Below are positions 1,582 through 49,374 of a stretch of 64,000 nt of DNA, one piece after another (position 1 is the first letter of the stretch; each line of letters opens with the position of its first letter). The notes below the pieces were generated by a model. It was not told the origin of the DNA. It was given only the letters and a program-made list of their open reading frames with translations, and made no database searches. Both the position numbers and the translations under genes were made by a program. Source of the stretch: Sanghuangporus weigelae. Lineage: Eukaryota > Basidiomycota > Agaricomycetes > Hymenochaetales > Hymenochaetaceae. The stretch covers positions 558,001 to 622,000 of the forward strand of contig CP137321.1 in NCBI GenBank assembly GCA_033182465.1. The letters are read 5' to 3'.

Positions 1582-4500
1582 TCAAGGTTGTCCGTTGGGA
1601 GTTCCCACCGTAACCGACCCGTACCCGAAAAATCGCGAATCCGTCAGAATAGTGCGGCAAGCAGCCAGGTCCTCCGAAATATGCGATAAAACACTCTCGT
1701 TTCCGAGACCTGCAGCCGTGCGCATGTCATAGCTAATGTCAAAGTCCGTATTGAAGAACGACTCCAGCGGAAGATTCGATAATGAATCAAAGCTGAGTGA
1801 GGGATCTAATTGCATTTGCGTCTGCTCGCTGCTTCCTTGACCAGACATGAAGGATTCTAAATCAGCACTGGATGATGCGTGAAGGGTACTGTTGCCCTCA
1901 TTTTCACTCGTACAGTGTGAGCTCGGGACCGGGCGTTGAGGAACACCAGAGTTTTGACCCCCAGCTTGGCCGCTGGCCAAGTGCGTTAAGGATGGTGCTT
2001 CGCTTCGACCCACATTGGCTTGCATCATTAGCGGTCGGTGAATTGCGCTTTGTTGTTGCATGGTATCAGCCCCCGCATCTCCAGGAGTACCTTGCAAACT
2101 CTCAGATCGCAGACGTGTGTGTAAGAGCTCCTGGTAATCAGGCGCAACACCACATGGAGATGGCACGAATGCAGATCGATTAGGTAAGCCACGACCAACT
2201 GGATACTCATGGTTGAGATTGAGCAAACTGGAACTCGAACTACTCCTCGACGTCTCCGGGTATTGATGAGAGCATGCTGATACCGGCTGCGTCCCAGACG
2301 ATGGTGTTGTCAAAGAGGTAGGAGTCATCATTTGGCTTATTTTTCCATCAAGAAATTCATATGTCATCTCCTGTACATCATCAAAGTGACTATCGTTGTT
2401 GGTTTGAGGTATCCCTCCCGCATTGATGACCGTACCATGCTCAAATGCGCTTCTCGTTGCGGGCATGTCCGGTTTCTGGGGTTGAGTATATGGTACACTA
2501 ATGTTATGTCGAACGAGGACTTCATATGCTCGATGACGCAATTGCAACACGGTAGGCTGAAGAACATCAATTTCCGAAATTTCAGGAAGGTAAAGCTAGG
2601 CGTACCATCAGATCTTTAATAAGCGGATGAATCTGCATTTCCTCAAGCATTTCAATGGAATTGTTGAACTCTTCAAATGCCTGGGGTGCAAGGGACGATA
2701 CCCCACAAGCAGCGACCGAGCCGAGAATTACGCTTGCAGAAAGTGCGTGAGCCCAGAATGGCCAGGCTCTAACGATTACATGGGGTCGATCATTCACAAG
2801 AGCTCGTACAGTGCGTAATATCGTTGATGCAGTCCGGTATGTGGACAAGAAAGAGGGAGCAAAACGACTTCGCGTTGGATCCGACGGATTCTCAATCAAC
2901 GCACGCACGAAAAAATTACGGTGCAACAGAAGCAGACCTGGACCGGATAGTCACTCCATGCGTCTAAACATGATCAAGAAACGGACTCACTTGCGTCCTT
3001 TATTAGAAGCATCAATAGGTGCCCTAAATGTCCTGGACCTTCATCCCGGCCACATGCTGGTGAGAAAATATTTAAATCAAAACCACGGATCTTCTGATCC
3101 ACTTTCAGGATCTCGGAGTACTTCAACGGTCGAACTGAGGTGAATTTATCAACTATGCCAGCCATGATTTCTTTTGAATAGGTGTAGCGGATCCTCCAAA
3201 CTGTTCGATGAGTCCCAGAAGTTAGATGACAGCGCATATAAATGATTAGAATGCATACAGCTCGGTAACTTGGTGCCGTCTTTAGTGATCGTGGCCTCCG
3301 TATCTTCGGGAAGTTCACAGTCAACGACAGAGGGATACAACGCCATAGGCCTGCCTGTCCCAACACTCTCAACTCGAAGTTAGTCTCTGTAATCAATAAA
3401 TCATTCGACGTGACCTACTTTCCATACGTCCATAGAATGAAGCTCCCATAGCAGCCTCCTTCTGCGCTGTACCTGCTTTGCAGAAAGATCAAAATGAGTT
3501 GGATCTCGGTCTATCTCCGAGAGCAAGCACGTCAGAAAGTCGGCCAAAGAAAAAATGGTTATGTTTTACTAACGCAAGCCAATCTAAAGGACAGACGAAT
3601 ATGAGTACATACTTTGCAGAGACAGACTTACTTACACTAGCAGCAAGCGACAAGCAAAAGCTAATGATTTTCCAACTGTTCTCGAGAGTAGATGTTCGGC
3701 AAGAGAAAATATCATAGCCTCCGAGAACTGCCAATGCTTGTATCGTATACAGATTGGTACTGTTGAATAATGACTCGAGGCCCATGGCTGTCCAAGATAA
3801 ATGATAATATAAATCCGCTTCCTCATTCCACGGAGGCAGTGTCAAATCTGCAACTGCTCCGGTAGCGAAGACTGCTAATAATAAAGCAAGTGCATGAGGA
3901 TGCGTGGGACGTGTCTCGTGAGAAGCGCTGCTGCGGCCAGGACGTTTCCTGCGATAGATCTGAGGCATGAGTTCTTCCGTGATTTGCTCTCGATCAACCA
4001 TTTTCACGAGCCAAGAAATGTTCTGGAGGTATGCTTCGATAAGAGCAGATCCTCGCTCGTATGAGGGAAGTTTATCTTCAATCTGAGCCTGAATTTCCTT
4101 CGCTGGAAGAAGGAGAGGCTCAAAGGGAAAAGTTGCTGGAGGTGGGCATTCGAGTGATGCCTGTGATAGACTGACCCTGGCGTGCATGACTTCAGCCGAA
4201 CCAAGGTGTTCCTGTCGTTGGTCAGACTTAAACTCTATCGTAGTTATTATCACTAGAAACTTACAATGACAAACTTCTACCATGAAATGTGAGCGAAAGT
4301 TCAAACTTACAGTAGAAAAGATACCTACGTTCGCGCTCAGATATGACTCTACTCCGCGTCCCATGTTTACCAAAGTCCCAACCATGTCTATTGTCTCCTC
4401 ATCGGAAGCATCGCTCTCATTCTCCGTGGGAGGCGATGTATTGGTGACATTCTTCACTTTAAACAACTCCTCGGAAAGCAATGGATGCGTCGTTGCTCCG

Positions 4501-5025
4501 GGTACGGAACTATGAGCTATCTGAAGAGCATCTTCAAGTTGACGGACCCGCTTGGCCATTTGAAGTAACTTATGCATTCGCAGATCCGTATGTCCCGAAG
4601 CAAACTGAGGAACATGAACAGGCGCCAATGTCCCTGTATGTTCTTTAATTAGAACGAGACTTTACGGCAATCTGAAAATAACACACCGTTCGGACAAATA
4701 GATTCGCATCCCTTACGTCTGCATGTTCCGCAAGGCACCTGTAGTCGAATTTTGTTTTGTAGTGCAAGCATCGGTAAGTTGTGCTATTGACCAGTACGTA
4801 CTGCTTTATCGCATCTGAGTTTTTGTCTATACAGCCCATGAATAGCTCGGCTGGCCACAAATATGAATAGATGCTCACCGCCGACATTCTGCACATGAAA
4901 TCTCGCCGTTTTCCCTTCGTTTCTAAACACTAGAGTTTAAAATATGGCGAAACATTATAGAAGAGACGCACTTCGATGGATTCTTTGGTTTTGATGCTCT
5001 TCCGTGAATTGATGGATGACAACAT
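1582..5025 (-). CDS. Zn2Cys6 zinc-cluster transcription factor, copy 1
   Basis: This is a nuclear DNA-binding regulator with a fungal-specific transcription factor middle domain. The start ATG at 5025 gives MLSSINSRKSIKTKESIE. Exons then give ISCAECRR, a 25-nt microexon (4802-4826) and VPCGTCRRKGCESICPNG. Together they make a complete C-x2-C-x6-C-x5-C-x2-C-x8-C cluster. A coiled coil follows (MAKRVRQLEDALQIA), then the middle homology region, including DPHALALLLA-like text, IDRDPTHF and VQRRRLLWELHSMDVWK. The C-terminus is polar and ends LESFFNTDFDISYDMR...CRTILTDSRFFG. A full-length paralog lies at 45884-49374 on the other strand with the same exon structure. The target genes cannot be read from sequence. 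No frameshift was seen. Confidence 0.9.
4802..4826 (-). other. 25-nt coding microexon in zinc cluster, copy 1
   Basis: It lies between a donor reading gtgagc (after codon fragment CG) and a donor reading gtacgt. Both flanking acceptors end in tag or cag. It supplies the third cysteine of the zinc cluster (QKLRCDKA). Without it the reading frame shifts, because 25 is not a multiple of three. Confidence 0.85.
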
Positions 5026-5885: not shown

Positions 5886-8800
5886 ATGTCCCGTTTTACC
5901 CGACCCCCGTTCCACAAGCCTTCGCCTTTCGATATACCTCGTCCAGTCAATCCCCATCCACCCAGTCCGCCAGAGACAGAAATCACGGCCGATTCGGTGC
6001 CGTTACCGCCAATGAGCATCGTCTCTCGGGATTTACACGCCTATACTGACATTGGAGCATCCTCATCTTTCACAAGGGTCGACGCGCCAGAAATGTATTA
6101 TCATTCGACAGCTGGATTAGAATCGCAGACGCAGGCGTCGACGCCAAATATGAATGGACGATTTCGCCGACCTTCAAATCTTTCGTATCTGCATCCGGGA
6201 TCTCTGCGGAATGATCTGCGTGCAGCGCCTCGCTCGGCGACGCGCTGGCTCGTGATGGTTATTCCTCCGACTGCGGTCGCCCGTGAACACGGGAACGGCA
6301 CGTTCCTGAGTGCGTCGCTACAAACATCCCAAGGCGTGCTGCTGCCCCTTCTGCCAAGTGTAAGTTTTCTTCTCAAGTTCCTAATGCGTAATCTTTCTCG
6401 GGTGCAGTCATCAAGCTGATTCACTCCTTTCATTTACGTTGACGAACCCCTCTCATTAATTTTTCGCCTTGGCTCCGCCTCTCATATAAATATGTAGCTA
6501 TCTGGCCAACTGACTGCGATCGCCCGCGAGTTCGCTTTTCCGAGTACAACGGGCATCTGTATCTATCTTCAAATGTCGGAAGGAGGCGTTCAGTTCGCAC
6601 CTCGCATCTCAGACGAATCATGGTCGATCCTCTGGGCTTCCGCGTTCGACGAGCGACAATCACTACACACAATGGGTGGCCTCCCTATCGCAGGGCGTAT
6701 CGAGTTTGACCTTGACCTGCGAAAAGCACGATGGTTTGACATGTGGTTAAGTTCGGTCCGAAATTCTGTAGACATCGGCATGGGCTCTGTTGCTTCCGCT
6801 TCGGTCCCTGCTTCCCTCGCTGCTAATACTAACCACCGGCGCGAGGATAGCCGGACGACGAACTTCGATCATACTGAGGAGTCATTTGGGGCGGGAGACG
6901 ATGTGTCTGTAACTATCCAACGGAAAACTCCTGTGGTAAGGCACGTCCCAAGGAAGCTGTCCCTTCTAGACCGCATAGATGTTTCATCTGTCAAGCCTCT
7001 GGCCATGCCTCGACCCGTCTCTCGGATCGCTTTGTCTCCGACAGATGCCGAGCAGCCGCGTCTTGTGCTCTCTCCCGTCGCGCAAACGCCAATTTCAATA
7101 CCAGTCCCTGTAACTATCGCAGTGGAAGGCGATGAACCTCAAACAGCGACTCAACGACGCTCCGATGTCGAGAAGAAGGTTGAAAACTGGCGCGCGTCTT
7201 CGACATTTGCTAAGTCACCTCTTGTCGCATCTACTGGACAAGTCTCGCTCGACCCGGCAAATATGCCGAATAACCAACCCCTAGTTGAGTCTGATGTTGT
7301 CGCAGCGAACGAACCGCTTAATTTGGATGACTTCACATGGAGCATCTCCTCTGCAGGCCCACTCTCCGCAGACTACGTCGATCCTATCCCACCTTATGCA
7401 GAAATATCTCGACCGCCTTCTGTGCACCTTGATGCACGTCTTGAAGGTTCCGTGTGCCTCACACCGACGACTTGTACTTCTTTCGGTCCTCCGGATTACG
7501 ATCCATTCTCGCCTGTAGTGAGCTTGGTCGACCGCTTACCTTCTCCGGATATTGCTGCGCGTCAACTTGAGGACGTCCCACCCACACCGACTACCGCGAC
7601 GAGCTGGGGACCACCCTCTGAGTGGCCTGGGAGCCCTGTGTCGGAAATGCGAGCCCCTTCAGTTGACATTGCTATGCGTGGATTGGGAAGTAGGCCAGTT
7701 ACGCCTACTACCGCAACAAGCTGGGGTCCACCTTCTGAGTGGCCTGGGAGCCCAGCTCGGTACTCCCGTGCTCCTTCTGTCGATCTCGCAATGCGTCAGC
7801 TTGGAAGCAGACCCGTAACTCCAAGCACGGCAACAAGCTGGGGTGCACCATTGGAATGGCCGAGAAGCCCTGCGACGTCTTTCTACTTACCCACGCCTGG
7901 CGTTGGAAACATGTTCTTTGATGGTCATGATGAAGAGAGGGCGTTGCTTGAGCCAAGACGCAATCTCCGGTCGATCAATGCGGGCGACAAAGAACCACAT
8001 TTGATGGTTCTCATGAATGATGATGCAATCCCAAAATCACGCCCGTGGAAATTCGTCTGGCCCTATACTGAATCCTCCGATTCGGATACGCAAGAGTCGA
8101 TTTCAGTATGCATACAATCAGTGTACCCTTGCATCTCTCTTTGTAAGTTCGTTCTATTATGGGAATGATTGGTTTCTGATTTATACGTTTACAGACCCTG
8201 CTGTCTACCCTCACTTCGATTTGTATCCTGCGGTTGCGGTACCTGTCAAGACTGCTAGACAACCCAGCCATCGACGAGATTTGCGTGCCCATACAGGTGT
8301 GACGGTAGAGCGTACCGCGAAGCCTTTGAATCATGACCGGCCCTATCAAAAGGTTGAGGATGTCACTTCGCCAATTGAAGTTCGGCTGCCATCGGTCTAC
8401 CCTTCGCTCGATCTTTGTGAGTTTCATCAAGCTTCGAGGATATTTCAGTGTTATTCACGTTTGAGACTAGATCCAGCGGTCTATCCTCACTTTGATCTCT
8501 ACCCTGTGAAATTGGTCGCGGTCGGCACTACTCGAGAGATTGACGTTCATCTTGAACCTAGATATCCGACGTTTAGTATCTGTGAGCTATCCAACTTCGT
8601 TTTGTAATGCTTTTACTGATCAGACACACGTTTCAGATCCAGCTGTTTACCCGACCTTTGAGATCTATCCTGGTCATGCCGTAGAACCTCAGCGAAACCA
8701 AGAAGGCATTTCAATTCACTTGGAACCAGCATATCCATGCCTTCGTCCCTGTGTGTCTTCTTTCCTCTTTTTAAGAAAGTCTATCAATTTCTGACATTGT

Positions 8801-11145
8801 TCCAGATCCGCCAGTGTACCCGTACTTTGACTTGTATCCTGCATCGCTCGTGGTGAAAACCAGTGGAGATAGATCACCCCCTCAAAAGCGTGCTTTGCCT
8901 TCCAACTCTGGCACTCTGCAGAAACGAAAAGCATCCCCCTGGAAGCACGTGTGGCCGTATCAGCAAGTCGAAGATGTCACTCGCCCGATGAATGTCCGAT
9001 TGGAGGCAGTGTACCCATCTTTCAATCTTTGTAAGTATTAATTGGATTATTGCTAAGTTAACAGTTTGTTAATTATGGTTTTTAGACCCTGCTGTTTACC
9101 CCAACTTTGAATTGTACCCTGCGTCTTACAGTGTTAAAAGCACCGCTGTCGTCAAAATTGCTCCTGTAGTGAGAACCAGAAGCGAAAGACCACTTCCCCA
9201 GCCGCACAGTGTCCCGAAATCCGATGTCGTAAGGTCGCAGAAGGCCTCAACTTGCAGGCATGTATGGCCTCATCAGCAAGTTTATCAGCAAGCTGAAGGT
9301 GTTACTCATCCGGAGAATGTTTCGCTGCCGGCGGTGTACCCTCGGTTTGACATCTGTGAGTTCTATGAAGTGAAGCGTGTTTGAATCTTTCTGAACTGTG
9401 TTATCTAGATCCGGCCTGCTACCCGCACTTCGATCTGTACCCCGAAGGGCCTGTTGTACACGGTCAGACTAAGGAGGTCGATGTCAAACTCGGTGCGAAG
9501 TATCCAAAATTTAGTATCTGTAAGTAATCATATTTTCTTTTATTGATTTCAACTAAGTTCTTTCCCCCTGAAAGACCCGGCTATCTATCCGGACTTTGAG
9601 ATCTACCCGGGTCATGTCGAGGAGGCGCAAAAGAATCTATATGATCTGCTGAAGGTGAAACTAGCAGGCTCTACGTACCCGAACTTTGATATCTGTAAGA
9701 TTCATTACGTTCCAGCTCTGATATTTGACCGGGGTACTGAAGCTCTTTCAGATCCAGCCGTATATCCATACTTCGACATTTACCGTTCCGGTGTAGCTTC
9801 TACCCCTGAGAATTGGCGCGAGGCCTGCCGTGTTGAGTTAGGTGCAAAGTATCCCTCAATGGTTATCTGTAAGTGTCATGTTCACTCTCCGGTCATTTTT
9901 GTCTCTGATCGCGTGCTTTAGATCCTGCGGTCTACCCTTACTTTGACATCTACCGCTCAGGTGTAGCTTCTACTCCTGAATACTGGCGTGAACCTTGTCG
10001 AGTTGAGTTAGCTGCGAAGTATCCGGTAATGGATATCTGTAAGTGGCATCAGTATGCTTGCATATTGCGTACTTCCGACTTGATTCTTATCCCGCTTGTA
10101 CTGTAGATGCTCCGGTCTATCCCCACTTCGATATCTACAGATCAGGTCACATCTCTGACTCGGCCCCTTTATCGAGGACGTTGTCAACGAAGCTAGAAGC
10201 AAAGTATCCGGCTTTTGACATTTGTAAGTTTCCAAATTACGGGTAGAAGATTTGCCTAATTCATTTTCCACAGATGTCGCCGTATACCCCCACTTTGAGC
10301 TTTATCCGTCGATACAAGTCGTAACTGTTTCGCCTAGGAGACGTCTACGCAAGACACACCGAGAGCTCATTGATCTCGTACTATCACAAAGCAGCAAGCC
10401 TGCGCCGACGGTGCAAACGCGTGTAGTACCTCGCATTTCCATCTCTTCTCACGAGACGCGTCGACGACCGAGGCGAACGCACAAGGATCTCGTCGAACAT
10501 GTCTTTCCTCAGAATGCTGACGAAGTGACACAGCCAGAGACGAGAAAAGAGTCGGTGGATATTCCGCGAGTGCGCAAAGCAGCGGACGTACCGCAAGATA
10601 CTCCAGGAGAGGGAAGGGCACGTATACGTAGAACTCCAAGTACAGGTGCCGCGAGACTGTCGCATATCCCCATACGGCCTTCAGAGATGCGGAGGTCCAT
10701 GTCCCTAGGTCAAGCAACGATGTCGTCCTCATCTGGAGTATCGCGCTCTCAATCTTTGAGACATTTGTCATCTGTTCGCGAGGAGAGTACTGTTGCCCGA
10801 AGCTACGGGGGAAGTGCAAGTCAATTGCGTCGTGTCGCCGGTAGCGAGCGAAAGCCTACTAGGGATAGTATCGTGCTGGAGAAGGCGAGGCTCTGGGGTT
10901 CTCCTGGTTCGTTATTTCCATTCTTCGTCATAAATTACGTCCTAATACATATTCATCCAGCCTCGAAGCCTATATCGCAAATAGACAATCCTTCACCAGT
11001 CTCAATGAAAGACCTTTCCGAATTCCCCATGCCTCCTCTGCCATCCCTTCCGAGCTCCAACGGCGTTCCCGGAGCTGCAGTTTCAACAGGCAAAATGGAC
11101 AGACCAGTATCGAAACTTGATCGAACCAAATTTCCCTTTCGGTGA
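5886..11145 (+). CDS. Large YP-repeat protein with one repeat per exon
   Basis: I do not recognise a named family. My model has 14 exons: 5886-6359, 6498-8142, 8195-8416, 8471-8581, 8637-8750, 8806-9030, 9086-9355, 9409-9519, 9575-9694, 9752-9868, 9922-10038, 10107-10223, 10274-10906 and 10961-11145. They sum to 4461 nt, an intact 1486-residue frame. The N-terminal part (to about residue 240) looks folded (LTAIAREFAFPST, ISDESWSILW). A disordered part with a 39-residue repeat (SWGPPSEWPGSP) follows. Next come about ten repeats in which YPxFxI-Y and PAVYPHFDLYP meet across each splice junction. The C-terminus is basic and Ser-rich. I see no signal peptide or membrane segment. The first intron (6360-6497) is less certain than the others. 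The function is unknown. Confidence 0.8.
7419..7871 (+). repeat. Protein-coding tandem repeat, about 117 bp unit
   Basis: Four successive units of about 39 residues each carry a motif like TPTTATSWGPPSEWPGSP, then a segment like APSVDIAMRGLGSRPV. The last three are closest to each other at DNA level. The first unit (SVHLDARL...TPTTCTSFGPP) is diverged. Confidence 0.85.
8195..10273 (+). repeat. Tandem array of ten phase-1 repeat exons
   Basis: Ten exons of 111-120 or 222-270 nt, all multiples of three, are separated by introns of 50-68 nt. Each exon opens with the end of a Tyr codon followed by a motif like PAVYPHFDLYP. Each closes with YPxFxI and the first base of the next Tyr codon before gtaagt or a close variant. 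Exons 9752-9868, 9922-10038 and 10107-10223 are all 117 nt. The first two are the most alike (GVASTPENWREACRVEL versus GVASTPEYWREPCRVEL). Confidence 0.9.
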
Positions 11146-23910: not shown

Positions 23911-24731
23911 CCTTGCTCGAGAAACGAACTTTATGAGATACAATGAAACGTGGTCTTGTTGCGAATGGGAGGTCGACGAAGAGTATGAGTTATGACTTGA
24001 CAAGAGACGCGTTGATGTCTTCATCTGGCGTAAGCATCAGTGTACGTAAGAACTTCCCGTAATGGTAATGATCTTGTTGTGTGTTCAATTCAAGTATTGG
24101 CCCTCAAATCAAGAGAACGAAAAGAAAGATGGGATGGGAAGTATGTGAATCGCTTGAGATGCGTTATGATATACACGGAGACGTTGTGATCTTTTCAACC
24201 AGTGATACTCTATTTGGACGTCCTCTTCAACTTGCTTCTCTACTTAGACACTTTATTCAAGTTTATTAAACAAAAATTCAATTCACAAATATTCTGACCA
24301 GAATAAAATTTCAATACATTCGAACTTGCATGATAAGAATTAACTACCTGAATGCAGTTGCACTCAAGAATTAGGAAAACTGAATGGATGACATTCAAAC
24401 TCCGCTTGAACCGCTCAATTAGCGAGACGCGCCGCGACCCGTGCGTGTTACTTACTAGTAATTGCTTCCGCATTCCCTTGCGCATATATTCAAAAGTCCA
24501 TTTCTCATATAATCTCTGTCGAGGTCATCTGTGCACAATCGTATCGTATCAGAACTTCTGCTTATCTCTACCCATTTAACTCGACGATTCGATTCGGCCG
24601 AAACCTGTAAGCCGGAAGACTCATCAGTCCGAACGAGATTAATCTTACTATGTAGTGCTGTGGCATAGACACAGTACGGAGATTAAGTCTCCTTCTTCAT
24701 TTCCGGTGTGTAAGTGTGATCGTTCATTACC

Positions 24732-24807
24732 GAGGTGTAAAGAACGAAACGAGGTGTAAAGAACGAAACGAGGTGTAAAGAACGAAACGAGGTGTAAAGA
24801 ACGAAAC
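24732..24807. repeat. 19-bp tandem repeat, four perfect copies
   Basis: Four head-to-tail copies of gaggtgtaaagaacgaaac read without mismatch. A partial unit (cgttcattac) precedes them. They lie in the gene-poor region and code for nothing obvious. Confidence 0.95.
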
Positions 24808-32973: not shown

Positions 32974-33958
32974 GCCCTTGCTTCTGAACGTGTCGAGCGC
33001 TTTCGGCCTCGTTGATTTTCTTCTCCCTTTCTTTCGCACAACGTTTCCTTCATTTACCACTTCATTCTCAAAACCACGGATGTGCCAGGTGTGCTCATTT
33101 CTTTCATCAATGTTCATGGTCTCCCGGAGGATCTATTGCCTCACGCATAAACATATTCCAGTCATAATCCTCGTCTGCTCCTCAACGCTGATCCTTCTCC
33201 TTCTCACCCTCTCACTTCCAACTCTTACGACTCCCATTCTTACCCGTCTTAGCTATTCTTTTTCACATCCTCAAGGGCAACTACGCTGGCGCGGTGGGTT
33301 TTTCTTTCTTTTTATTTTCTCTTCTCGTTCTTCTGGTACTCGACTCCTAACTCATGATCGCATAATACCCCATATACGCCTTCGTTTAAATTACTCATCA
33401 TACATTCATACTTTCCTAACTCCCTTTTATCCCGTCTGTTCTTTCATCCCTTTTAACTTTGGAGGAATTTAAGCTCCGGATCCAATTCTATCATCCTCAT
33501 TCTAAACTTTTCTGATCCCTCATGAGTAGTGATCATGATCATGTATGTATATGTATGTATGTACAGAGATTCAGTACTGTTGGTGCCATCCAAAACCTAT
33601 TTATTCGGACTGGATTACGATTAAAGAGAGCTGTGATTGGTTGTTTTGATGGCTTATGTGAGCGGCTTGATCCAATACCGTCAGACGCGTCTTGTTCAGA
33701 ATTTCTTGCTTGTTCAAGCGACTTGGATGCCGCCCTCATAAACGACGGTGCGACGACCTACACAAGTCTTATAGTTTTTTTCAAAGACGAGCGTGTAGTT
33801 GACACTTGAAGGACATCTGGCGGCAAGAGTGTGCGTTCTACACGAGGAGCCTGGGCAGTGGTAAGGAGAAATTCCGCCAGCTGGCACAGCGAGGTCTTTG
33901 GCTACAGTTCTGACCTTTTATTTCATCCTTCTTAGGATGGTTAGAAGACAAAAAGTTG
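32974..33958. other. Intergenic
   Basis: C+T-rich DNA runs from 33000 to 33450 and a short TGTA-type microsatellite lies near 33540-33562. Open frames lack an ATG or recognisable content. The promoter of the PPR-like gene is expected near its right end. Confidence 0.5.
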
Positions 33959-36115
33959 ATGCTCAGGGCGTCCTCATCGGGCATCGTCCTCCTCAAACAT
34001 TGCCTCTCAGAGTCTCAAACTCGTGCAGCACAACGACGCGTCGTTTATCACGCTCTGCAATGTCATTGTCTTTTTCACACACATGCCCCTGCGAACTCGA
34101 GGTTCTCGACGCGATTTGGATCGCCTCTGTCGACTCTTATCAACCCACCTGTGGAAGCCAGCAAAGCCGAAGGAGAGGGAATACGAGAAGGAGAGCAGCG
34201 GGAAGAATTGTTGCCTCCGGGACTAGGATTAGATACACTGGGAGAATTGGACGGAAAATCGATTCGGAAGAGGATGAGGTATTATTATTTGCCTTGGGCG
34301 CGTCCTCCGCCTCCTCGGACGAGTACTCGACGCATTGGTCAACGCGAAGGTGCAGCTGGTGTCAACGGAAGGAGCACCCGGGCTGGGAGGAAGAAGAGGC
34401 TGGTCGAGAAACGCATGGTAAATGCTTCTTCGGAACGTCGTTCTCGTGTCAGAACCACGAAACCACGAAGACACAAGCTAGGAAAAGTCGACTATGCCGA
34501 AAAAACAAAAGAGGAAGTCATTGCGTCAGAAGTAGAAGGAGACGCAGTAGAAGATGCGATACTCGACCGTGTGGAATCAAGCATTTCGCATCAGGTACCC
34601 GACGACCAAGTGAAAATACAGGAGGAGTCTATCGACAGCTACGAACTTCACCCCGAGGGAGTGATCCATGTAGAAGATCTATCTACAAAACAGCTCCAGG
34701 CAATCATCCTGGACAAGAACTCAGATCTCATGGGACTCACTTGGGATGCGTACCAACGACTCATCTCTCTCGACGCCGAATTTCATTATCAAACACTCTC
34801 CGACAGCCAGCAAGGAGCGGCATCACTCAGCTTCATCAGCCCTGGCCTACTCATCACACTCGCCAACCGACTCATCGCACAACGCAAACACCATCACAAA
34901 AACTCCCGAGAGATATTTCTCCGACTTATATCGGTTTACGCTCGTCTCCGGAAAGAACGTGCTAGAGGCGGTGGAGTGCCCTATCTGAGGACTCCCGAGT
35001 GGAATTGTTTGATTCATTTTGCCGGGACGGGTTTGCGTGGGAAGATGTCTCTCGAGGCCTACAATGCGTCTGTAGACGTCTATGAGGATATGCTTCGCGG
35101 TGTAGAAGACGCGCGTTCTGCTGGTCGCGATTCTTTGCTGAAAGAAATCGAGCCTGACATCTATACGTATACCTCGCTTCTCAACATCGCGTTACGAACG
35201 GAGCACCAGCCCGCTATCGAGCATGCCATGAAGCTTCTACAAGAGTCAGGCAAAGAGCCGACGCGAATTACCCATTTATGCATGATTCGTTATCGGTATA
35301 AATATAGTGGGCTCGTCGGCGTACGTGCCTTGTTGTCCTCGTTAAAGCCTGAAGATATTGGCGCGGATGGCGTGACGGCGTACATGGCATGTGCGGGGAA
35401 CGATGGTTACTTGGATATTGTCCGGAATATCTACGATGCGCTTCGGAGGAATGTCGAGATGCACGAGGATGGGACGTACGGGCCTTTCGCCAATCACAAT
35501 CGACATACGGAAGGCAGCGACTCTCTCGAAGCACCTGCGGTCAATGACGGGAATAGCGATACTGACTCTGAGAAGTACATGCTAGTCGAAGGTATCCGGC
35601 TTCCGCGTTCACTGGTCCCCTCCGCCTCGATATACAACTACACCATTCAAATTTTCGCGTACTACGGACGTCTAATCGACGCTTTGCAAGTCTTTATGGA
35701 CATGCTCGCTACGCGTCAACCAGGTCTCCGGGGGACGGCGAAGTTCTTCCAGCCCAACTTTGCAGTCTTTCGGGGCTTGTTTCTTGGCTTTGCACGGCAT
35801 GGATGCAGGACGGATTCCAAATCATCATCCTTTTCCCCGTCTACTACATCGCCGACTCCTCTCACCGAGATCTCGCAAATACCAGAATGGAATTGGGACC
35901 GATTCAACATCATACTAGATGCATTAATCGAGCACAGCGATTCAATCAGACCACCGAGCGATAGGATGGTGTACTGGATTATGACTGCCGTGCGGCGGAT
36001 AACGGGCGACGAGCGACTTATGCGAGATGTCTGGAGAAGACTGAACGAGCGTTGGTACATCCGCAAAGGCGGGAGGTTAAAAGCTTTGGATCTCAAGTAT
36101 GGGCGGACTAAATAG
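33959..36115 (+). CDS. Mitochondrial pentatricopeptide-repeat-like protein
   Basis: A single open exon of 718 codons starts at ATG 33959 (MLRASSSGIVLLKHCL). The N-terminus is Arg/Ser/Ala-rich and lacks acidic residues (AAQRRVVYHALQCHCLFHTH), as in a mitochondrial presequence. A basic segment follows (GRKKRLVEKRMV). The C-terminal two thirds carry helical repeats in PPR style: IEPDIYTYTSLLNIALRTEH, IEHAMKLLQESGKEPTRITH, GADGVTAYMACAGNDGYLDI, SASIYNYTIQIFAYYGRLID and ALQVFMDMLATRQPG. PPR proteins bind organellar RNA; the target is unknown. The absence of introns stands out against its neighbours. It is convergent with AMMECR1. Confidence 0.8.
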   Translation: MLRASSSGIVLLKHCLSESQTRAAQRRVVYHALQCHCLFHTHAPANSRFSTRFGSPLSTLINPPVEASKAEGEGIREGEQREELLPPGLGLDTLGELDGKSIRKRMRYYYLPWARPPPPRTSTRRIGQREGAAGVNGRSTRAGRKKRLVEKRMVNASSERRSRVRTTKPRRHKLGKVDYAEKTKEEVIASEVEGDAVEDAILDRVESSISHQVPDDQVKIQEESIDSYELHPEGVIHVEDLSTKQLQAIILDKNSDLMGLTWDAYQRLISLDAEFHYQTLSDSQQGAASLSFISPGLLITLANRLIAQRKHHHKNSREIFLRLISVYARLRKERARGGGVPYLRTPEWNCLIHFAGTGLRGKMSLEAYNASVDVYEDMLRGVEDARSAGRDSLLKEIEPDIYTYTSLLNIALRTEHQPAIEHAMKLLQESGKEPTRITHLCMIRYRYKYSGLVGVRALLSSLKPEDIGADGVTAYMACAGNDGYLDIVRNIYDALRRNVEMHEDGTYGPFANHNRHTEGSDSLEAPAVNDGNSDTDSEKYMLVEGIRLPRSLVPSASIYNYTIQIFAYYGRLIDALQVFMDMLATRQPGLRGTAKFFQPNFAVFRGLFLGFARHGCRTDSKSSSFSPSTTSPTPLTEISQIPEWNWDRFNIILDALIEHSDSIRPPSDRMVYWIMTAVRRITGDERLMRDVWRRLNERWYIRKGGRLKALDLKYGRTK

Positions 36116-41163: not shown

Positions 41164-44157
41164 ATGGGCCAGTTCACGGAAGATGTTATTCTTCTCGCCA
41201 AGAGAGCTGCCGCGGAGCAGGTGTGTTATTCCCCATTTCATATATAGCCGTCTTATAGCTGATTACCGTTACATCAAGGCCGGCATCATCTCAGGCGACA
41301 ACCCCGCAGAGTACAATGCAAGCAACCCCTTCAGACTATGGGTCATCCAGGCTGGCATCATTATTATCTTCACCCAGCTCCTATCCATCGTCCTGGGTCG
41401 TATTCGACAGCCTCGGGTGATCGCCGAGGTCATTGGAGGTGTCCTCCTTGGACCCTCCGTGATGGGTCAAATCCCGGGATTTTCTGACAACATATTCCCG
41501 TCTGATTCTATACCAATTCTCTCTCTGACTGCAAATGTGGGCTTGGTGTTTTTCTTGTTCCTTGTGGGCTTGGAGGTGGACATAAGCATGGTGAAGCGGA
41601 ATGCCCGTGCAGCGTTCTTCATCAGTGCGACCGGCCTGATCATTCCGTTGGGACTTGGTGCTGCTTTAGCCGTCCCTATCTATCATGAATTTGTCGATGT
41701 AAGCATTTCATAAAGTTAATCTTCTGTGATAGACGTGCTGATTATATCACAGTCTGACGTGAATTATGGGCATTTCATCTTGTTCGTGGCGGTGGCGGTA
41801 GGCATTACGGCCTTCCCTGTTCTCTGCCGTATCCTTACGGAGACTCGGCTACTGGAAACTCCTGTTGGTGTTGTTACTCTCGCTGCAGGCGTTGGCAACG
41901 ATGTCGTGGGGTGGATTTTGCTTGCCCTGGCCGTCGCGCTGGTAAACGCTTCGACGGGTCTCACTGCACTCTGGGTTCTTTTGACTGGTGTTGGATGGGT
42001 GCTCTTCATGTTATTTCCTGTCAAATGGGCCTTCCGCTGGCTCGCCCGGAAGACAGGAAGCCTTGAGGGCAGTCACCCGAGCATGCTGATGATGACCATT
42101 ACGTTCCTCATGGTCCTTGTATCTGCCTTCTTCACTGACATTATTGGCATCCATGCTATTTTTGGTACGTGATTTCTCAGCATCAAATTATCTGGTAGTT
42201 CTTGAGCGCTCTTTCTTGTAGGTGGTTTCCTTGCTGGACTAGTTATCCCACACGAAGGAGGGTTTGCTATCGCTCTCGTCGAAAAACTGGAAGATTTCGT
42301 GTCGCTTGTCTTCTTGCCATTGGTAGGTTCTCATCTCGTCTTCCTTTGAGCAAACGGTCATTGATTGGCGTGTAGTACTTCGCATTCTCGGGTCTCAGGA
42401 CCGACCTTGGCTTACTGGACAACGGCAAGACTTGGGGATATGTCGTCCTTATTTGTGTCATTGCTTTCGTTTCAAAATTCTTCGGCTGTGCCATCACTGC
42501 CAAACTCAATGGGTTTAGTATTCGCGAATCTGGCGCGATCGGAACTCTCATGAGCTGCAAGGGGCTCGTGGAACTCATTGTATTGAACGTCGGGTTTCAA
42601 GCAGGCATCCTCGACACACGATTGTTCTCGATGTTTGTGCTGCATGCGATTGTTTTGACGTTCATTACAACTCCGTTGACGCTTCTCTGGTACCCTGAGT
42701 CGAAGCGAAGTCGGTATGGCAGGGTCAGTAAGGAGAAGCCTGTCCAGCCACCGCCGAGAGATTCAGGCGCGACGCAATTGCCTTATGATGAAACGATGAA
42801 AACGAAGTTCGCAGTTGTTCTAAACAGAGTCGAACATCTTCCCGCAATCATGATACTTACTCAACTCCTTCAACGCCATGCGGCAACCAAACGCACATCC
42901 TTTGGTAGTATAAGCGAGAGCGATGAGAAGACCATCGAGCATTCAATGCCAATCGTTCAATTGTCGGCTCTTCGTCTTGTCGAGCTCACTGAGCGTACCT
43001 CAGCTGTGCTTCGCTCGCAGGAATCAGCTGCTCTCGCAGCCGCAGATGCACTTTTGAGCGTTGTTCGCACGTGCGGGAGAATGTATCGTCTGCCTGTCTC
43101 CGGAGAACTTTCCGTTGTATCTTCTGATGGATTCTCTCGAGAAGTCACAAGCTTCGTCAATGAGCAGGCCGCACACATGGTTGTTATTCCGTGGTCACTC
43201 AGGCCCACAAGTGTATCTGGTTCAGACGCGAGTGAGGAACAGAATGTGTCGTTTACGACTCCCTTCGCGGTGGGTTCGTACAATCCTTTCGAGGGTCTCT
43301 TTTCGGCCGCTTCGGCCGTTGGCTCGGGATCCGTCGTATATTCTACGTTTATTCGGAAGGTCTTCGCAGAGTCACCTGCTGACGTTGCGCTTGTTATTGA
43401 TCGTGAATCCTCTTCTCCCGATGTGTCTAATGGAATGGGCGATGTGGATGGACAGCACTTGTTCTTACCATTCTTCGGTGGGCCTGATGATCGTCTGGCT
43501 CTGGAACTACTCGTCCAATTATGTACGAACCCCACTGTCTCAGCGACAGTCGTTCGCATTCGCGTTACCGAGGAAAGTACAGCAGAGGATGCCGGAGTGG
43601 AGAGGATGGATACGATAGGAGAAGAGAAAGCTGTAGCGCTCTCAAACTTCACCGTAGCGGGACCGGGGACGACCACTGCCGATACACACCATGGTGCTCA
43701 GACGACGCAGACGCGTATGCAATCTGACACTGTCGACGATCTCGTATGGAGTCGGTATGCTTCGAAGAATACTTCGTCTTCTCCCCTTCCACCGTCTACA
43801 CTCGACGCTCTCTCGCGCATCACCTTCCAAACTGTCTCTTCATCACAGCCGCTCCATGCTGCACTGACGCGTGCCGCACAAGTACCTGAGACCATCATCA
43901 TTGCTGGGCGCGGGCGACGGCTTGCTCGTGAATCCCACCGTGCTGAACTTAAACGTTTGCTGATCGCTTCTGGGCACGCTGCTCGAGACGCTGGAGCCGC
44001 AGGTGGAGAGATGAGTCGTACAGTGGGTGATGTGGCCGCTGCTTTTCTTCTCGTCCCTCACGGTAGCACGACTGCTGCTTCTACTTCCGCGCCGGCGCCG
44101 AAACCTGGCGCGGTGTTTGTCGTTCAGGCTGCATTTCCTCGTGGTCAGGCAGTATAG
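41164..44157 (+). CDS. K+/H+ antiporter, Kha1 type (CPA2 family)
   Basis: This is a membrane cation/proton exchanger of endomembranes. The ATG at 41164 gives MGQFTEDVILLAKRAAAEQ. The next exon begins at 41279 (AGIISGDNPAEYNASNP). About twelve membrane helices follow, such as IIIIFTQLLSIVLGRIRQPR, VIAEVIGGVLLGPSVMG and VGLVFFLFLVGLEVDI. The ion-binding region reads ILLETPVGVVTLAAGVGNDV-like text (GVGNDVVGWILLALAVAL). Then IIGIHAIFGGFLAGLVIPH, YFAFSGLRTDLGLLD and MSCKGLVELIVLNVGFQAGI. A long cytosolic tail (42700-44157) has two universal-stress-like segments (AVVLNRVEHLPAIMILTQLL) and ends FPRGQAV. Introns lie near 41700-41755, 42165-42220 and 42323-42375. It is convergent with HIS6. Confidence 0.93.
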
Positions 44158-45883: not shown

Positions 45884-48800
45884 ATGCCTCCATCTCGGAA
45901 TATCTCGAGGCATAAAGATTCTGTCGAGGTTCGTTTGTTATGTTGCATCCTCCGCATCCTCGGTGTGACTTGAAGATCCAAAGGTACGCCGCGCTAGAGG
46001 CGAGATCTCTTGTGCCGAATGCCGCCGGTAAGCATCTATTCCTGATGTTTGTTCCAAAATATTAACCGTAGTGCATAGACATAAGCTAAAATGCAATAAA
46101 GCCGTAAGTGCTGCACTTACATGCTTCGGTAACGCTAACCTGGCAAGACATCGGTTATAGATTCCTTGTGGAACATGCATACGAAAGGGATGTCCAAATA
46201 TTTGTCCAAACGGTATGTCAACCTGGATTCGAAAACTCACAATATATATCCAAGACAACATAATGCGCAGGAACGTTGACGCCTGGTCAATCGGCTCGTC
46301 ATGGTCTGAAGGACACAGATGCGGATGTACAAACTCAGAAGCTAACGCAAATGAGCAAAAGAATTCAGCAGCTCGAAGATGCTCTCCGGATGGCCCACAG
46401 CTCACTCACGATATCGACACACCCTCTACTATCCGATGAACTTCTTAAAATAAAGAATATCATTGAGGGTCCGATGCATGTGAAAATGGAGACTGACGCT
46501 TCAGACGATGACACCGTGGATTCTATCGGAACGTTGAGAATGCTAGGACGTGGCATAGAATCGTATGTCGGTGCGAATGTACGCGTCTTTATCTGTCTGT
46601 AGGCTCAACTGGACTTATCTGCATCAACAGAAACTCGTCATCGTAAGCTCTCATTGCTAAGCACAATATTCTTGTAATTAACGATGCGAAGGATAGTTTT
46701 GGTCCTGCGGATGCCATGCATTTGTTGGCGAATCCACTGGCTTCGCCAACAATGACTCTTCCAGGAGAGACATTTCCTTTTAAACCTCTATATCTCCCGG
46801 CCGACGAGATTCTTGCGCAGATCGAAGAGAAGCTTCCTTCGTTTGAGCGAGCATCAGCGGTTGTAGAGGCATATCTCGAGAATACCACATGGCTCGTAAG
46901 GCTAGTTGATCGAGAACAAATCATGGAAGAGCTCATACCACAAATCTACCGAAGACGACAATATGCGAAGAACGGCGCAACGGGTGAGACTCAATCGACG
47001 GATCCTCATGCTCTTGCTCTATTGCTCGCGATATTCGCATGCGGAGCGGTAGCCGATCTAACACTTCCCCTTTGGAACGAGGAAGCGGATGTATATTATC
47101 ACCTGGCATCCACAGCCATCGGAGTGAGATCCGTTTTCGATGGCACCAGTCTTCATACCATACAAGCATTAGCGGTTCTTGGCTCGTATGATGTTTTCTC
47201 GTGCCGCAAGAATTCACTCGAGGGAACATGGAAGTTGATCAGTTTCTGTATATCGCTGGCTGCTAGCGTAAGCATCTCCTTCCGAAGTCTAATATGGCTG
47301 ATAACGCTGATAATACTCGTACGGATTGTTCAGATTGGCTTGCGTCAGTTCTAAATTGTCATTTTGCTTTGAAATGCTTCTGATGTTTTGTATGACCGGT
47401 TGTCGACTTAGATCGAGACCCATCACATTTCAAGTTTTCTCCAAAGCAGATACAACGCAGAAGACAGTTATTTTGGGAACTTTATTGTCTGGATACATGG
47501 AAAGTACGTTGTTTCTATTACTAAATGGACTGCACAATCTCCTTAGTTCATATTGAGAGTATTGGATCTGGAAGACCAAGGTCTCTGAATCGGGATGCCA
47601 TTGACTGCGAGCTTCCTGAGGATACGGAGGCAACGGTTCTCGATGACGGAACGAAAATACCAAGTGGTATGACTCGCTTCCTTCGGATTCTCTGGTGCTT
47701 AGCTCACATGGACTTGGATTTCAGTCTGGGGTTTACGCCACCGGTTCACAAAGGAAATTGTCTCTGATTTGGTGGATAGACTCACTTCGGCTCGTGCACT
47801 GAGATATTCAGAGATCTTGCTGCTTGATCAAAAAGTCCGCGACTTTCGCTCCGACGAAATTGTCAAGGTGGAAACAAAGTCCAGAGTCAGGACGGATCCA
47901 AGCACTCGGGAGCTGTTGGAAAGACTGATGCTTATTCTACTGAAAGAACCGAGTACGTTGATTTTGTATGCTACGTCACTGCTTGACATTTTACCATTTA
48001 TTCCAGCATTACTTCTATTGCATCGTAATTTCTTCCTCCGTGCATTGGTGGAGAATCCCACGGATCCGATGCAGAGCCATTTTGCACCTTCTTTTCTTGC
48101 TACTTATCGCAGCGCGACCATGATATTACGTGGTCTAAGAGGACTTATGGATGAGTGCGGCCACTTCGTCGTGAGAATATGGCCGATATGGGCACACGCG
48201 CTTTCTGCGAGCGTAATGCTTGGCTCGGTCGCCGCATGTGGGACGCGAGCCGCATTTGCACCGGAGGCATATATAGAATTCAACCATTCGATCGATATGC
48301 TCGCAAAGGTGCAGATGCACCCGCTTATCAGGAACTTATTGGTTCGTCTTGCTTATGCTGCGCAATGACCTAGCGGACTGATGCAACTCCGTTGCTCTCC
48401 AGCCCACAGTGTTGCAACTGCGAGACCGAGCATACGATGCGCTCGTTAGACATGGCAATGTTGTACCGAACACTCGATCTCCCGTGCTGATCCACCCTCC
48501 TAAGATTGAGGGAAGGAGCTTCAATCCCCTCAATAGCATGGGTTGGATGGTTCGAAAACGGCTCCAAGGCCACTTTGGTACTCATGGCACTCCACACCAA
48601 TCCATAAGCGACTACTTAGACGAGTCGATGTCTGGACCGGATACTCCTTCGGCCAGTACTTCTACGTCTTCGGGAACGGTGGGAGGTGCTTATTCTGGAG
48701 GGGTCACCCACCAACAATCGGATTTGACGGCCAAGACCAGTTTGGACAGAATGTTCAACCATGATCAAAAGAATACTGCTCAAGCCACGAGCCCAACTTT

Positions 48801-49374
48801 ATCCGATATGATGGTCGGTCCCCAGGATTCCTTACTTTCGCAAATCAACACCGCGCAATATGCATCCGGAACACCGCGAGTTTCATCCACCAATCAATAT
48901 GGCCTTTATCTGCCATCAGAAGTGCAAGTCGACTACGGACAAGGCACAGAACGACTTCCTTCTCACAATACCAATGGGCAGACCTCCAACCATGACCTCG
49001 GGATCCTACAGAACCCGCAAATGAGCTCTTCGAGTCGAGCCGAATATCACAATAGCCTTCAAAGCGCGTCTAACGCCGGCTTTGGAGTTTATTCCGCGGG
49101 TCTAGATGGTGGGGAGCATGTACAAGTGCAAATGGATAACGCGCAATTCCCAATGGACTTCGACTCATTACCGGATTTCTCGCTCGAATCATTGCTCAAT
49201 ACGGATTTCGATGTGAGCTTTAATATGCGTTCGTCTACCGGGGACGAAAACATCCTGCCATTGATATCCGACGACCTTGAGCCATGTCGAACTATTTTGC
49301 AAGATTCGCGATTTTTTGGAATAGGGCCGGATATTTCAACTCCGGGTAATGAGAACCAGGTCGGAGGAGCTTGA
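45884..49374 (+). CDS. Zn2Cys6 zinc-cluster transcription factor, copy 2
   Basis: This is a paralog of the gene at 1582-5025. The first exons are 45884-45928 (MPPSRNISRHKDSVE), 45984-46027, 46079-46103 (25 nt), 46161-46212 and 46271-46578. They join to ISCAECRRHKLKCNKA and IPCGTCIRKGCPNICPNG, a complete Zn2Cys6 cluster. A coiled coil follows (MSKRIQQLEDALRMAHSSL). The middle homology domain includes DPHALALLLAIFACGAVADL, LDRDPSHFKFSPKQIQRRRQ and VWGLRHRFTKEIVSDL. The C-terminus is Ser/Gln-rich and ends with LESLLNTDFDVSFNMR and CRTILQDSRFFGIGP. Residue differences between the copies are spread evenly and both frames are open, so both appear functional. Targets are unknown. Confidence 0.9.
46079..46103 (+). 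other. 25-nt coding microexon in zinc cluster, copy 2
   Basis: It is flanked by acceptor gtgcatag and donor gtaagtg. It encodes the end of an Arg codon and HKLKCNKA, including the third zinc ligand. It has the same length, phase and position as the microexon in copy 1. Confidence 0.85.

What the first reader, a model, noticed from the sequence alone, without database searches (positions are those of the whole stretch)
8142..10273. Protein built from tandem single-exon YP repeats, with all eleven introns splitting the same Tyr codon
From 8142 to 10273 eleven introns of 50-68 nt are all phase 1. Each splits a Tyr codon after its first T, so every exon is symmetric and a multiple of three. Each unit joins YPxFxI, Tyr and PAVYPHFDLYP across the junction. 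Symmetric exons with a fixed split codon can be gained or lost without breaking the frame, so this looks like exon-by-exon expansion. The repeat motif matches no family I can name.
Basis: seen in the sequence. Interest (0 to 1): 0.75.

Follow-up and report, generated by a model that had tools for sequence, protein, structure and literature searches.

The report
Fungal protein grown by exon duplication
A gene of a bracket fungus makes a long, mostly floppy protein whose tail is a row of Tyr-Pro repeats, one per exon, and comparison with relatives indicates that it grew by copying whole exons, a known way to build a repeat protein seen here in a family with no known function.

Summary
Window 5886-11145 carries a 14-exon gene (1486 aa). 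Its repeat region has eleven introns of 50-68 nt, all phase 1, all splitting TAC/TAT after T; the ten exons between them are multiples of three. A Sanghuangporus weigelae database protein of the same length is identical at 1471 of 1486 residues. The double motif YPx[FL]x[IL]-Y-PAVYPxFx[IL]Y occurs in 118 of 120 listed homologs; no Pfam family matches. In 109 unannotated ORFs of relatives, 98 first-half motif sites read into Cys (the TGT of a T|GT donor) and 38 into Tyr; second halves, 0 and 20. The intron site is therefore old and specific to one half of the motif, though 14 ORFs run through some units without it. A unit tree shows a multi-exon block duplicated before Sanghuangporus and Fomitiporia split, and points to a one-exon duplication within Sanghuangporus. 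The introns themselves have diverged beyond recognition. The only confidently modelled part is a small N-terminal domain, perhaps beta-grasp. Most likely a disordered multivalent scaffold grown by exon duplication, partner unknown; YPX3[LI] spacing hints at an ALIX/PalA-type adaptor, untested. Known mechanism, uncharacterised family.

The parts
5886..11145 (+). whole coding region, 14 exons, 1486 aa
   Evidence: database protein of equal length identical at 1471 of 1486 residues
6222..6758 (+). N-terminal conserved domain (about residues 113-245), interrupted by the phase-0 intron 6360-6497; beta-grasp-like in models of relatives
   Evidence: same domain in a paralog; boundaries approximate
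7590..7849 (+). 117-nt tandem repeat (2.2 copies) coding TPxTATSWG.PxEWPxSP units
   Evidence: translation
8046..8069 (+). PWxxVWPY motif at the end of exon 2 (WKFVWPY)
8143..8194 (+). repeat intron 1, phase 1, splits TAC
8195..8416 (+). exon 3, 222 nt, long unit (type A)
8417..8470 (+). repeat intron 2, phase 1 (54 nt, no in-frame stop)
8471..8581 (+). exon 4, 111 nt, type B
8582..8636 (+). repeat intron 3, phase 1
8637..8750 (+). exon 5, 114 nt, type C
8751..8805 (+). repeat intron 4, phase 1 (donor GTGTGT)
8806..9030 (+). exon 6, 225 nt, type A with PWKHVWPY at 8937-8960
9031..9085 (+). repeat intron 5, phase 1
9086..9355 (+). exon 7, 270 nt, type A
9356..9408 (+). repeat intron 6, phase 1
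9409..9519 (+). exon 8, 111 nt, type B
9520..9574 (+). repeat intron 7, phase 1
9575..9694 (+). exon 9, 120 nt, type C
9695..9751 (+). repeat intron 8, phase 1 (57 nt, no in-frame stop)
9752..9868 (+). exon 10, 117 nt, first of a recent pair
9869..9921 (+). repeat intron 9, phase 1
9922..10038 (+). exon 11, 117 nt, second of the pair (79% nt identity to exon 10)
10039..10106 (+). repeat intron 10, phase 1
10107..10223 (+). exon 12, 117 nt, groups with the last unit of Fomitiporia and Phellopilus
10224..10273 (+). repeat intron 11, phase 1
10274..10906 (+). exon 13: last half-motif and C-terminal region
10907..10960 (+). last intron, phase 1, splits GCC (Ala), outside the repeats
10961..11145 (+). 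exon 14 and stop

Best explanation
This is the gene of an uncharacterised protein found in many mushroom-forming fungi: a small folded N-terminal domain followed by more than a thousand residues that are probably mostly disordered and carry several kinds of short repeated motif. The last and largest array, YPx[FL]x[IL]-Y-PAVYPxFx[IL]YP joined by variable linkers, lies one period to an exon, because an ancestral unit was bounded by phase-1 introns in the middle of the motif, and tandem duplication and loss of whole exon-intron units (single exons and blocks) then changed the number of units without disturbing the frame. Shown here: the exon layout, its recurrence in relatives, unit orthology, purifying selection on one duplicated exon pair. 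Inferred: that the introns are spliced as drawn in this species; that unequal exchange made the copies; that the motifs are docking sites which make the protein a multivalent scaffold. Most speculative: that each half-motif, which has YPX3[LI] spacing, binds a V-domain adaptor of the ALIX/Bro1/PalA kind.
For: Gene model and phases; equal-length S. weigelae protein, 1471 of 1486 identical. Motif in 118 of 120 (both halves, strict pattern) and 120 of 120 (single half). In 109 unannotated ORFs of relatives: first-half sites 98 Cys and 38 Tyr, second-half sites 0 Cys and 20 Tyr, Fisher p 2e-10; 86 of the 87 ORFs with such a site have at least one first-half Cys; 69 of 98 are followed by K or E, as a GTAAG or GTGAG donor would read; 78 of 86 end within 40 residues. 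Six annotated homologs (P0067, P0076, P0081, P0084, P0104, P0106) carry in-frame intron-like inserts at the same site, YPxxxxC...DPxxYP. Unit tree: type C of Fomitiporia unit 3 with Sanghuangporus unit 3 (0.98), Fomitiporia unit 6 with Sanghuangporus unit 7 (0.74), all apart from Coniferiporia unit 3 (0.79); type B Fomitiporia 5 with Sanghuangporus 6 (0.85). Exons 10 and 11 share 34 of 39 residues, against 30 and 32 of 39 with the single Fomitiporia unit; their dN is 0.07-0.09 and dS 0.76-2.0 by two methods. Motif residues are better kept than linkers (95% and 78% to S. baumii, 74% and 46% to Fomitiporia), though the motif set was defined on one of the two sequences. Model of a relative: 935 of 1161 residues below pLDDT 50.
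Against: No RNA data for this species. 38 first-half sites read on into Tyr; by eye 5 are not repeat units and 2 are second halves, leaving 31 uninterrupted sites in 14 ORFs, among them P0342 on a 99.7-kb contig with five. 22 of the 109 ORFs hold no such site, and 9 of these end in ...CK at another motif, so their first intron is elsewhere. Type A units do not fall in register in the tree (Fomitiporia unit 4 with Sanghuangporus unit 1, unit 1 outside), so the copied block is safe only for B and C. The tree does not itself resolve whether the exon 10/11 pair arose in Sanghuangporus. No intron homology remains to show that introns were copied along. The scaffold role and any partner are inference.
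Confidence: 0.6

Rival explanations
1. The repeats came first in one exon, and introns were inserted again and again into the same sequence context (a proto-splice site in the motif), as introner-like elements do.
For: Every unit offers the same context; intron sequences show no common descent (mean z 0.44, 5 of 55 pairs at p<0.05, about 3 expected). Some relatives have uninterrupted units.
Against: The second half of the motif has nearly the same FDLY context but no Cys read-through in 20 sites, against 98 in 136 for the first half; introner copies would be expected to resemble one another; units in register across genera point to copying of whole units.
Confidence: 0.08
2. Symmetric exons are kept because exon skipping makes isoforms with different numbers of units, as reported for brown algal LRR exons.
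For: All ten exons can be skipped in frame, and two of the eleven introns can be retained in frame without a stop. In brown algal ROCO genes, one LRR per exon in one phase goes with alternative splicing (PMC11378527, passages seen).
Against: No transcript data here. From general knowledge, exon skipping is rare in fungi and intron retention common. The in-frame inserts in six annotated homologs may be annotation errors.
Confidence: 0.12
3. The repeats form a structural or secreted material (adhesive, silk-like or amyloid-like), as the borrowed name 'salivary gland secretion 1' on two homologs would suggest.
For: Tyr-Pro-rich tandem repeats; short strands predicted in some units. Name on P0025 and P0074.
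Against: No hydrophobic stretch like a signal peptide or membrane segment (highest 19-residue Kyte-Doolittle mean 1.41, internal; no signal-peptide program was run); conserved N-terminal domain and other motifs; strands have pLDDT mostly under 55. The name is an automatic label with no paper found for it.
Confidence: 0.1
4. The array is an artefact or decaying gene.
For: Only that no RNA was seen.
Against: One open frame across 13 junctions; near-identical database protein; purifying selection in the exon 10/11 pair; homologs in many genera.
Confidence: 0.01

Closest known systems
Brown algal ROCO (and NB-TPR) genes: one LRR or TPR per exon, equal phase
   Same: One repeat period per exon, all introns in one phase, copy number changed in whole exons (PMC11378527, passages seen).
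   Different: There phase 2, 72-nt exons, folded LRRs, diversifying selection and alternative splicing reported; here phase 1, exons of 111-270 nt, probably disordered motifs with variable linkers, purifying selection in the pair tested.
Animal class 1-1 exon modules (EGF, fibronectin, Ig and the like; recalled)
   Same: Phase-1 symmetric exons duplicated in tandem.
   Different: Those exons usually hold a whole folded domain; here the intron cuts the conserved motif in half, and the host is a fungus.
YPX(n)L / YPX[LI] ligands of ALIX, Bro1 and PalA/Rim20 V domains
   Same: Tyr-Pro followed by Leu or Ile; YPX3L spacing is known from PAR1 and P2Y1 (reference titles in PMC5037681); YPXL/I is bound by Aspergillus PalA (reference title in PMC2171039).
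   Different: Here an array of up to dozens with further fixed residues (F or L at position 4, D/N at 5, Y at 7) that the adaptor motif does not ask for; no binding shown.
Ubiquitin-like (beta-grasp) domains: PB1, RA, ELMO RBD, ubiquitin

Membership tests
Repeat array grown by symmetric-exon duplication | Same phase on both sides of every repeat exon | tested here: met
   ten of ten exons
Repeat array grown by symmetric-exon duplication | Intron at the same place of the repeat in every unit | tested here: met
   11 of 11 in the window; in relatives 98 of 136 first-half sites
Repeat array grown by symmetric-exon duplication | Copy number differs between relatives by whole units with traceable orthology | tested here: met
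   clean for types B and C, not for type A
Repeat array grown by symmetric-exon duplication | Introns copied along still share sequence | tested here: inconclusive
   no similarity left; dS of the youngest pair is already 0.76-2.0
Repeat array grown by symmetric-exon duplication | Splicing as predicted | not testable with these tools
   no RNA reads; 11 of 11 full-length homologs known only from unannotated contigs lie on contigs under 8 kb, as transcripts would, which is indirect
Introner-type repeated intron gain | Introns alike in sequence | tested here: not met
ALIX/PalA-binding YPX(n)[LI] ligand | YP with Leu or Ile one to three residues on | tested here: met
   Leu/Ile at the sixth position in 0.426 of 5271 YP sites against 0.115 background; next offsets 0.222, 0.081, 0.035
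ALIX/PalA-binding YPX(n)[LI] ligand | V-domain partner encoded in the genome | not tested
   The genome search with PF13949 did not complete
ALIX/PalA-binding YPX(n)[LI] ligand | Binding | not testable with these tools
   needs bench work
Ubiquitin-like / PB1 / RA domain (N-terminal part) | Beta-grasp fold | tested here: inconclusive
Ubiquitin-like / PB1 / RA domain (N-terminal part) | Sequence profile match | tested here: inconclusive
   no Pfam match for the window protein at E 0.09 or better other than a spurious viral one, none for 7 homologs or 7 paralogs
Salivary gland secretion 1 (label on two homologs) | Secreted glue protein with signal peptide | tested here: inconclusive
   no hydrophobic N-terminal stretch by hydropathy; no dedicated predictor run

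The most novel reading that the evidence does not exclude
A scaffold found across mushroom-forming fungi carries dozens of YPX3[LI] docking sites for an ESCRT-type V-domain adaptor, with its valence set in exon-sized steps, by duplication over evolution and perhaps by exon skipping within a fungus.
Probability: 0.07. Interest if true: 0.8.

Novelty: new variant of a known kind. Interest (0 to 1): 0.45.

Why it matters
It is a clear fungal case of one repeat period per symmetric exon, with the intron cutting a conserved motif in half and an internal control (the other half of the motif, never cut) that argues for unit duplication over repeated intron gain. It also brings to notice a conserved Agaricomycete protein family without name, domain model or function, in which the number of motif copies differs between genera. 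If the motifs dock a partner, the exon layout offers a natural series of valences to test.

Tried and rejected
Chance as the measure of eleven equal phases: dropped, since the units are copies. Intron homology between units: none found. Pfam for the window protein, 7 homologs, 7 paralogs and 5 further homologs: no acceptable family. Solved structures by sequence: only a chance hit to a haemoglobin (E 0.12), none for the paralog profile. Foldseek against viral models: one hit at E below 0.001, over 981 columns with rmsd 48.9, meaningless. Autophagy idea: the PWxxVWPY motif holds a W-x-x-V core like an Atg8-binding motif (recalled), and one homolog bears an 'Autophagy-related protein 1...' label; no domain supports it, so it stays a lead. 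Literature: no paper with any of six motif strings, none joining the 'salivary gland secretion 1' name with Moniliophthora; searches on exon duplication with fungi or basidiomycetes gave no such fungal case in their listings; septal-pore idea gave nothing. In one search my pattern split one unit in two and merged others; one search corrected the short piece and widened the pattern. In one search a loose rule put four sites into the second-half Cys class; the stricter rule has none. The loose C-terminal pattern (SKLDR-like) fits only 33 of 120, so I make no claim on it. Limits: one search lists 120 of 242 hits and one search lists 120 of 276, two were already known, and I dropped the 9 named ones of the 118 new before counting; could only return ORFs of about 306-973 aa, so fully uninterrupted genes could not show there. 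The genera of the named homologs are taken as Agaricomycetes by recall; only S. weigelae was looked up.
Full report
What is there. The window lies in a 33.9-Mb genome of 13 contigs. The gene runs from ATG 5886 to a stop ending at 11145, 14 exons, 1486 aa. A protein of the same length from Sanghuangporus weigelae is identical at 1471 of 1486 residues, and those of S. vaninii and S. baumii at 90 and 89%, so the window is from that genus or very near it. The first intron (6360-6497) is phase 0; the next eleven, in the repeat region, and the last (10907-10960) are phase 1. All eleven repeat introns split a Tyr codon after T. The repeat exons 3-12 are multiples of three.

The motif. In 120 listed homologs of 242, every one holds the half-motif YPx[hydrophobic]x[ILVM] (8-32 copies) and 118 hold the strict double motif (first tally). 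Anchored only on YPA[VA]Y[PA] (496 sites), the flanks are Y 0.99, P 0.97, then F/L/I 0.97, D/N 0.77 and L/I 0.96 before it; behind it F leads at 0.63 and the last position is L/I at 0.72, with a minority form one residue longer. Two neighbouring arrays belong to the protein: TPxTATSWGPP units (117-nt tandem repeat at 7590-7849) and PWxxVWPY, found in 112 of 120 homologs, 333 copies in all. In the window, PWxxVWPY stands in exon 2 and exon 6, with decayed forms in exons 3 and 7.

Is the intron site old? Fungal genomic DNA of relatives could not be reached, so I used a protein database that holds mechanically called ORFs. Searching with exon 2 read into its intron gave 276 hits, 120 listed, 118 new; I dropped 9 named ones and kept 109. 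87 of 109 hold a half-motif followed by Tyr or Cys. At first halves the next residue is Cys 98 times and Tyr 38 times; at second halves 0 and 20 (Fisher p 2e-10). Cys is 1% of residues in these ORFs; here it is what T|GT would read, and K or E follows in 69 of 98, as GTAAG or GTGAG would read. 78 of 86 ORFs stop within 40 residues. This is what an intron at the same place gives. Against it: 22 of 109 hold no such site, and 9 of these end in ...CK at another place; 31 first-half Tyr sites in 14 ORFs are truly uninterrupted by my reading, for instance the first unit of P0281, P0283, P0300, P0301, P0305, P0309 and P0332, five sites in P0342 on a 99.7-kb contig, and several in P0348. The search could not return ORFs above about 973 aa. 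The complementary search could: its 11 listed homologs known only from unannotated contigs all lie on contigs of 3.9-7.9 kb, as transcripts would, so no long genomic contig with a fully uninterrupted array was listed; 122 hits were not listed. Six annotated homologs carry in-frame intron-like inserts at the site; a seventh, P0062, reads into Cys without returning in frame; the P0015 row is a false match.

How the array grew. Units of S. weigelae, S. baumii, Fomitiporia mediterranea, Coniferiporia weirii and Phellopilus nigrolimitatus were cut by pattern, aligned and put into a FastTree tree (47 units, last half-units left out). Type C units fall into two groups, each with one Fomitiporia and both Sanghuangporus copies (0.98 and 0.74), apart from the single Coniferiporia copy (0.79). 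Type B behaves likewise for the second copy (0.85). A block of at least B and C was therefore copied after the split from Coniferiporia and before that of Fomitiporia and Sanghuangporus. Type A, which would make it a three-exon block, is not in register and stays open. The unit of exons 10 and 11 is single in Fomitiporia, Coniferiporia and Phellopilus and double in Sanghuangporus; the two copies share 34 of 39 residues in S. weigelae, against 30 and 32 with Fomitiporia, which favours a copy made within Sanghuangporus, but the tree does not settle it. Units present in Fomitiporia (7 and 8) have no counterpart in Sanghuangporus, so units are also lost. Between S. weigelae and S. baumii all ten units correspond one to one. 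Exon pair 10/11 has dN 0.07-0.09 and dS 0.76-2.0. The eleven introns share no sequence beyond chance, as expected at such dS; direct proof that introns were copied with exons is thus gone.

Comparison. One repeat per exon in a single phase is known: brown algal ROCO genes have one LRR per 72-nt phase-2 exon, with exon shuffling, diversifying selection and alternative splicing (PMC11378527, abstract and passages), and animal modules are the textbook case (recalled). What differs here is the host, the cut through the motif, variable linkers, and conservation in place of diversification. I found no print on this family. I therefore call it a new variant of a known kind.

Noticed in passing
7590-7849: 117-nt tandem repeat inside exon 2 coding TPxTATSWGPPxEWPxSP units, a second repeat class of the same protein that recurs in relatives' ORFs.
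   Followed up: partly
24731-24807: Perfect 19-bp tandem repeat, 4.1 copies, 100% matches.
   Followed up: no
1585-2595 (-) and 48382-49371 (+): Two ORFs 46 kb apart on opposite strands are paralogs, 31% identical over 326 aligned columns, no Pfam match; the first lies beside a fungal transcription factor domain ORF at 3492-4661.
   Followed up: partly
33914-36112, 42376-44154, 50643-51809 (+): Neighbouring ORFs with PPR, sodium/proton exchanger and RRN3 domains.
   Followed up: no
L002:460-2418 (own genome, contig 1): Paralog with the N-terminal domain but a long insert in it and no YP array; its family has at least 120 listed members and no Pfam domain.
   Followed up: partly
homologs P0067, P0076, P0081, P0084, P0104, P0106: Annotated proteins with in-frame inserts that look like retained introns; probably annotation errors, possibly isoforms.
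   Followed up: partly
homologs P0320, P0321, P0322, P0334, P0335, P0338, P0343, P0356, P0357: These ORFs end in ...ACK or ...SCK before any YP unit, so this lineage has its first intron at another place.
   Followed up: no
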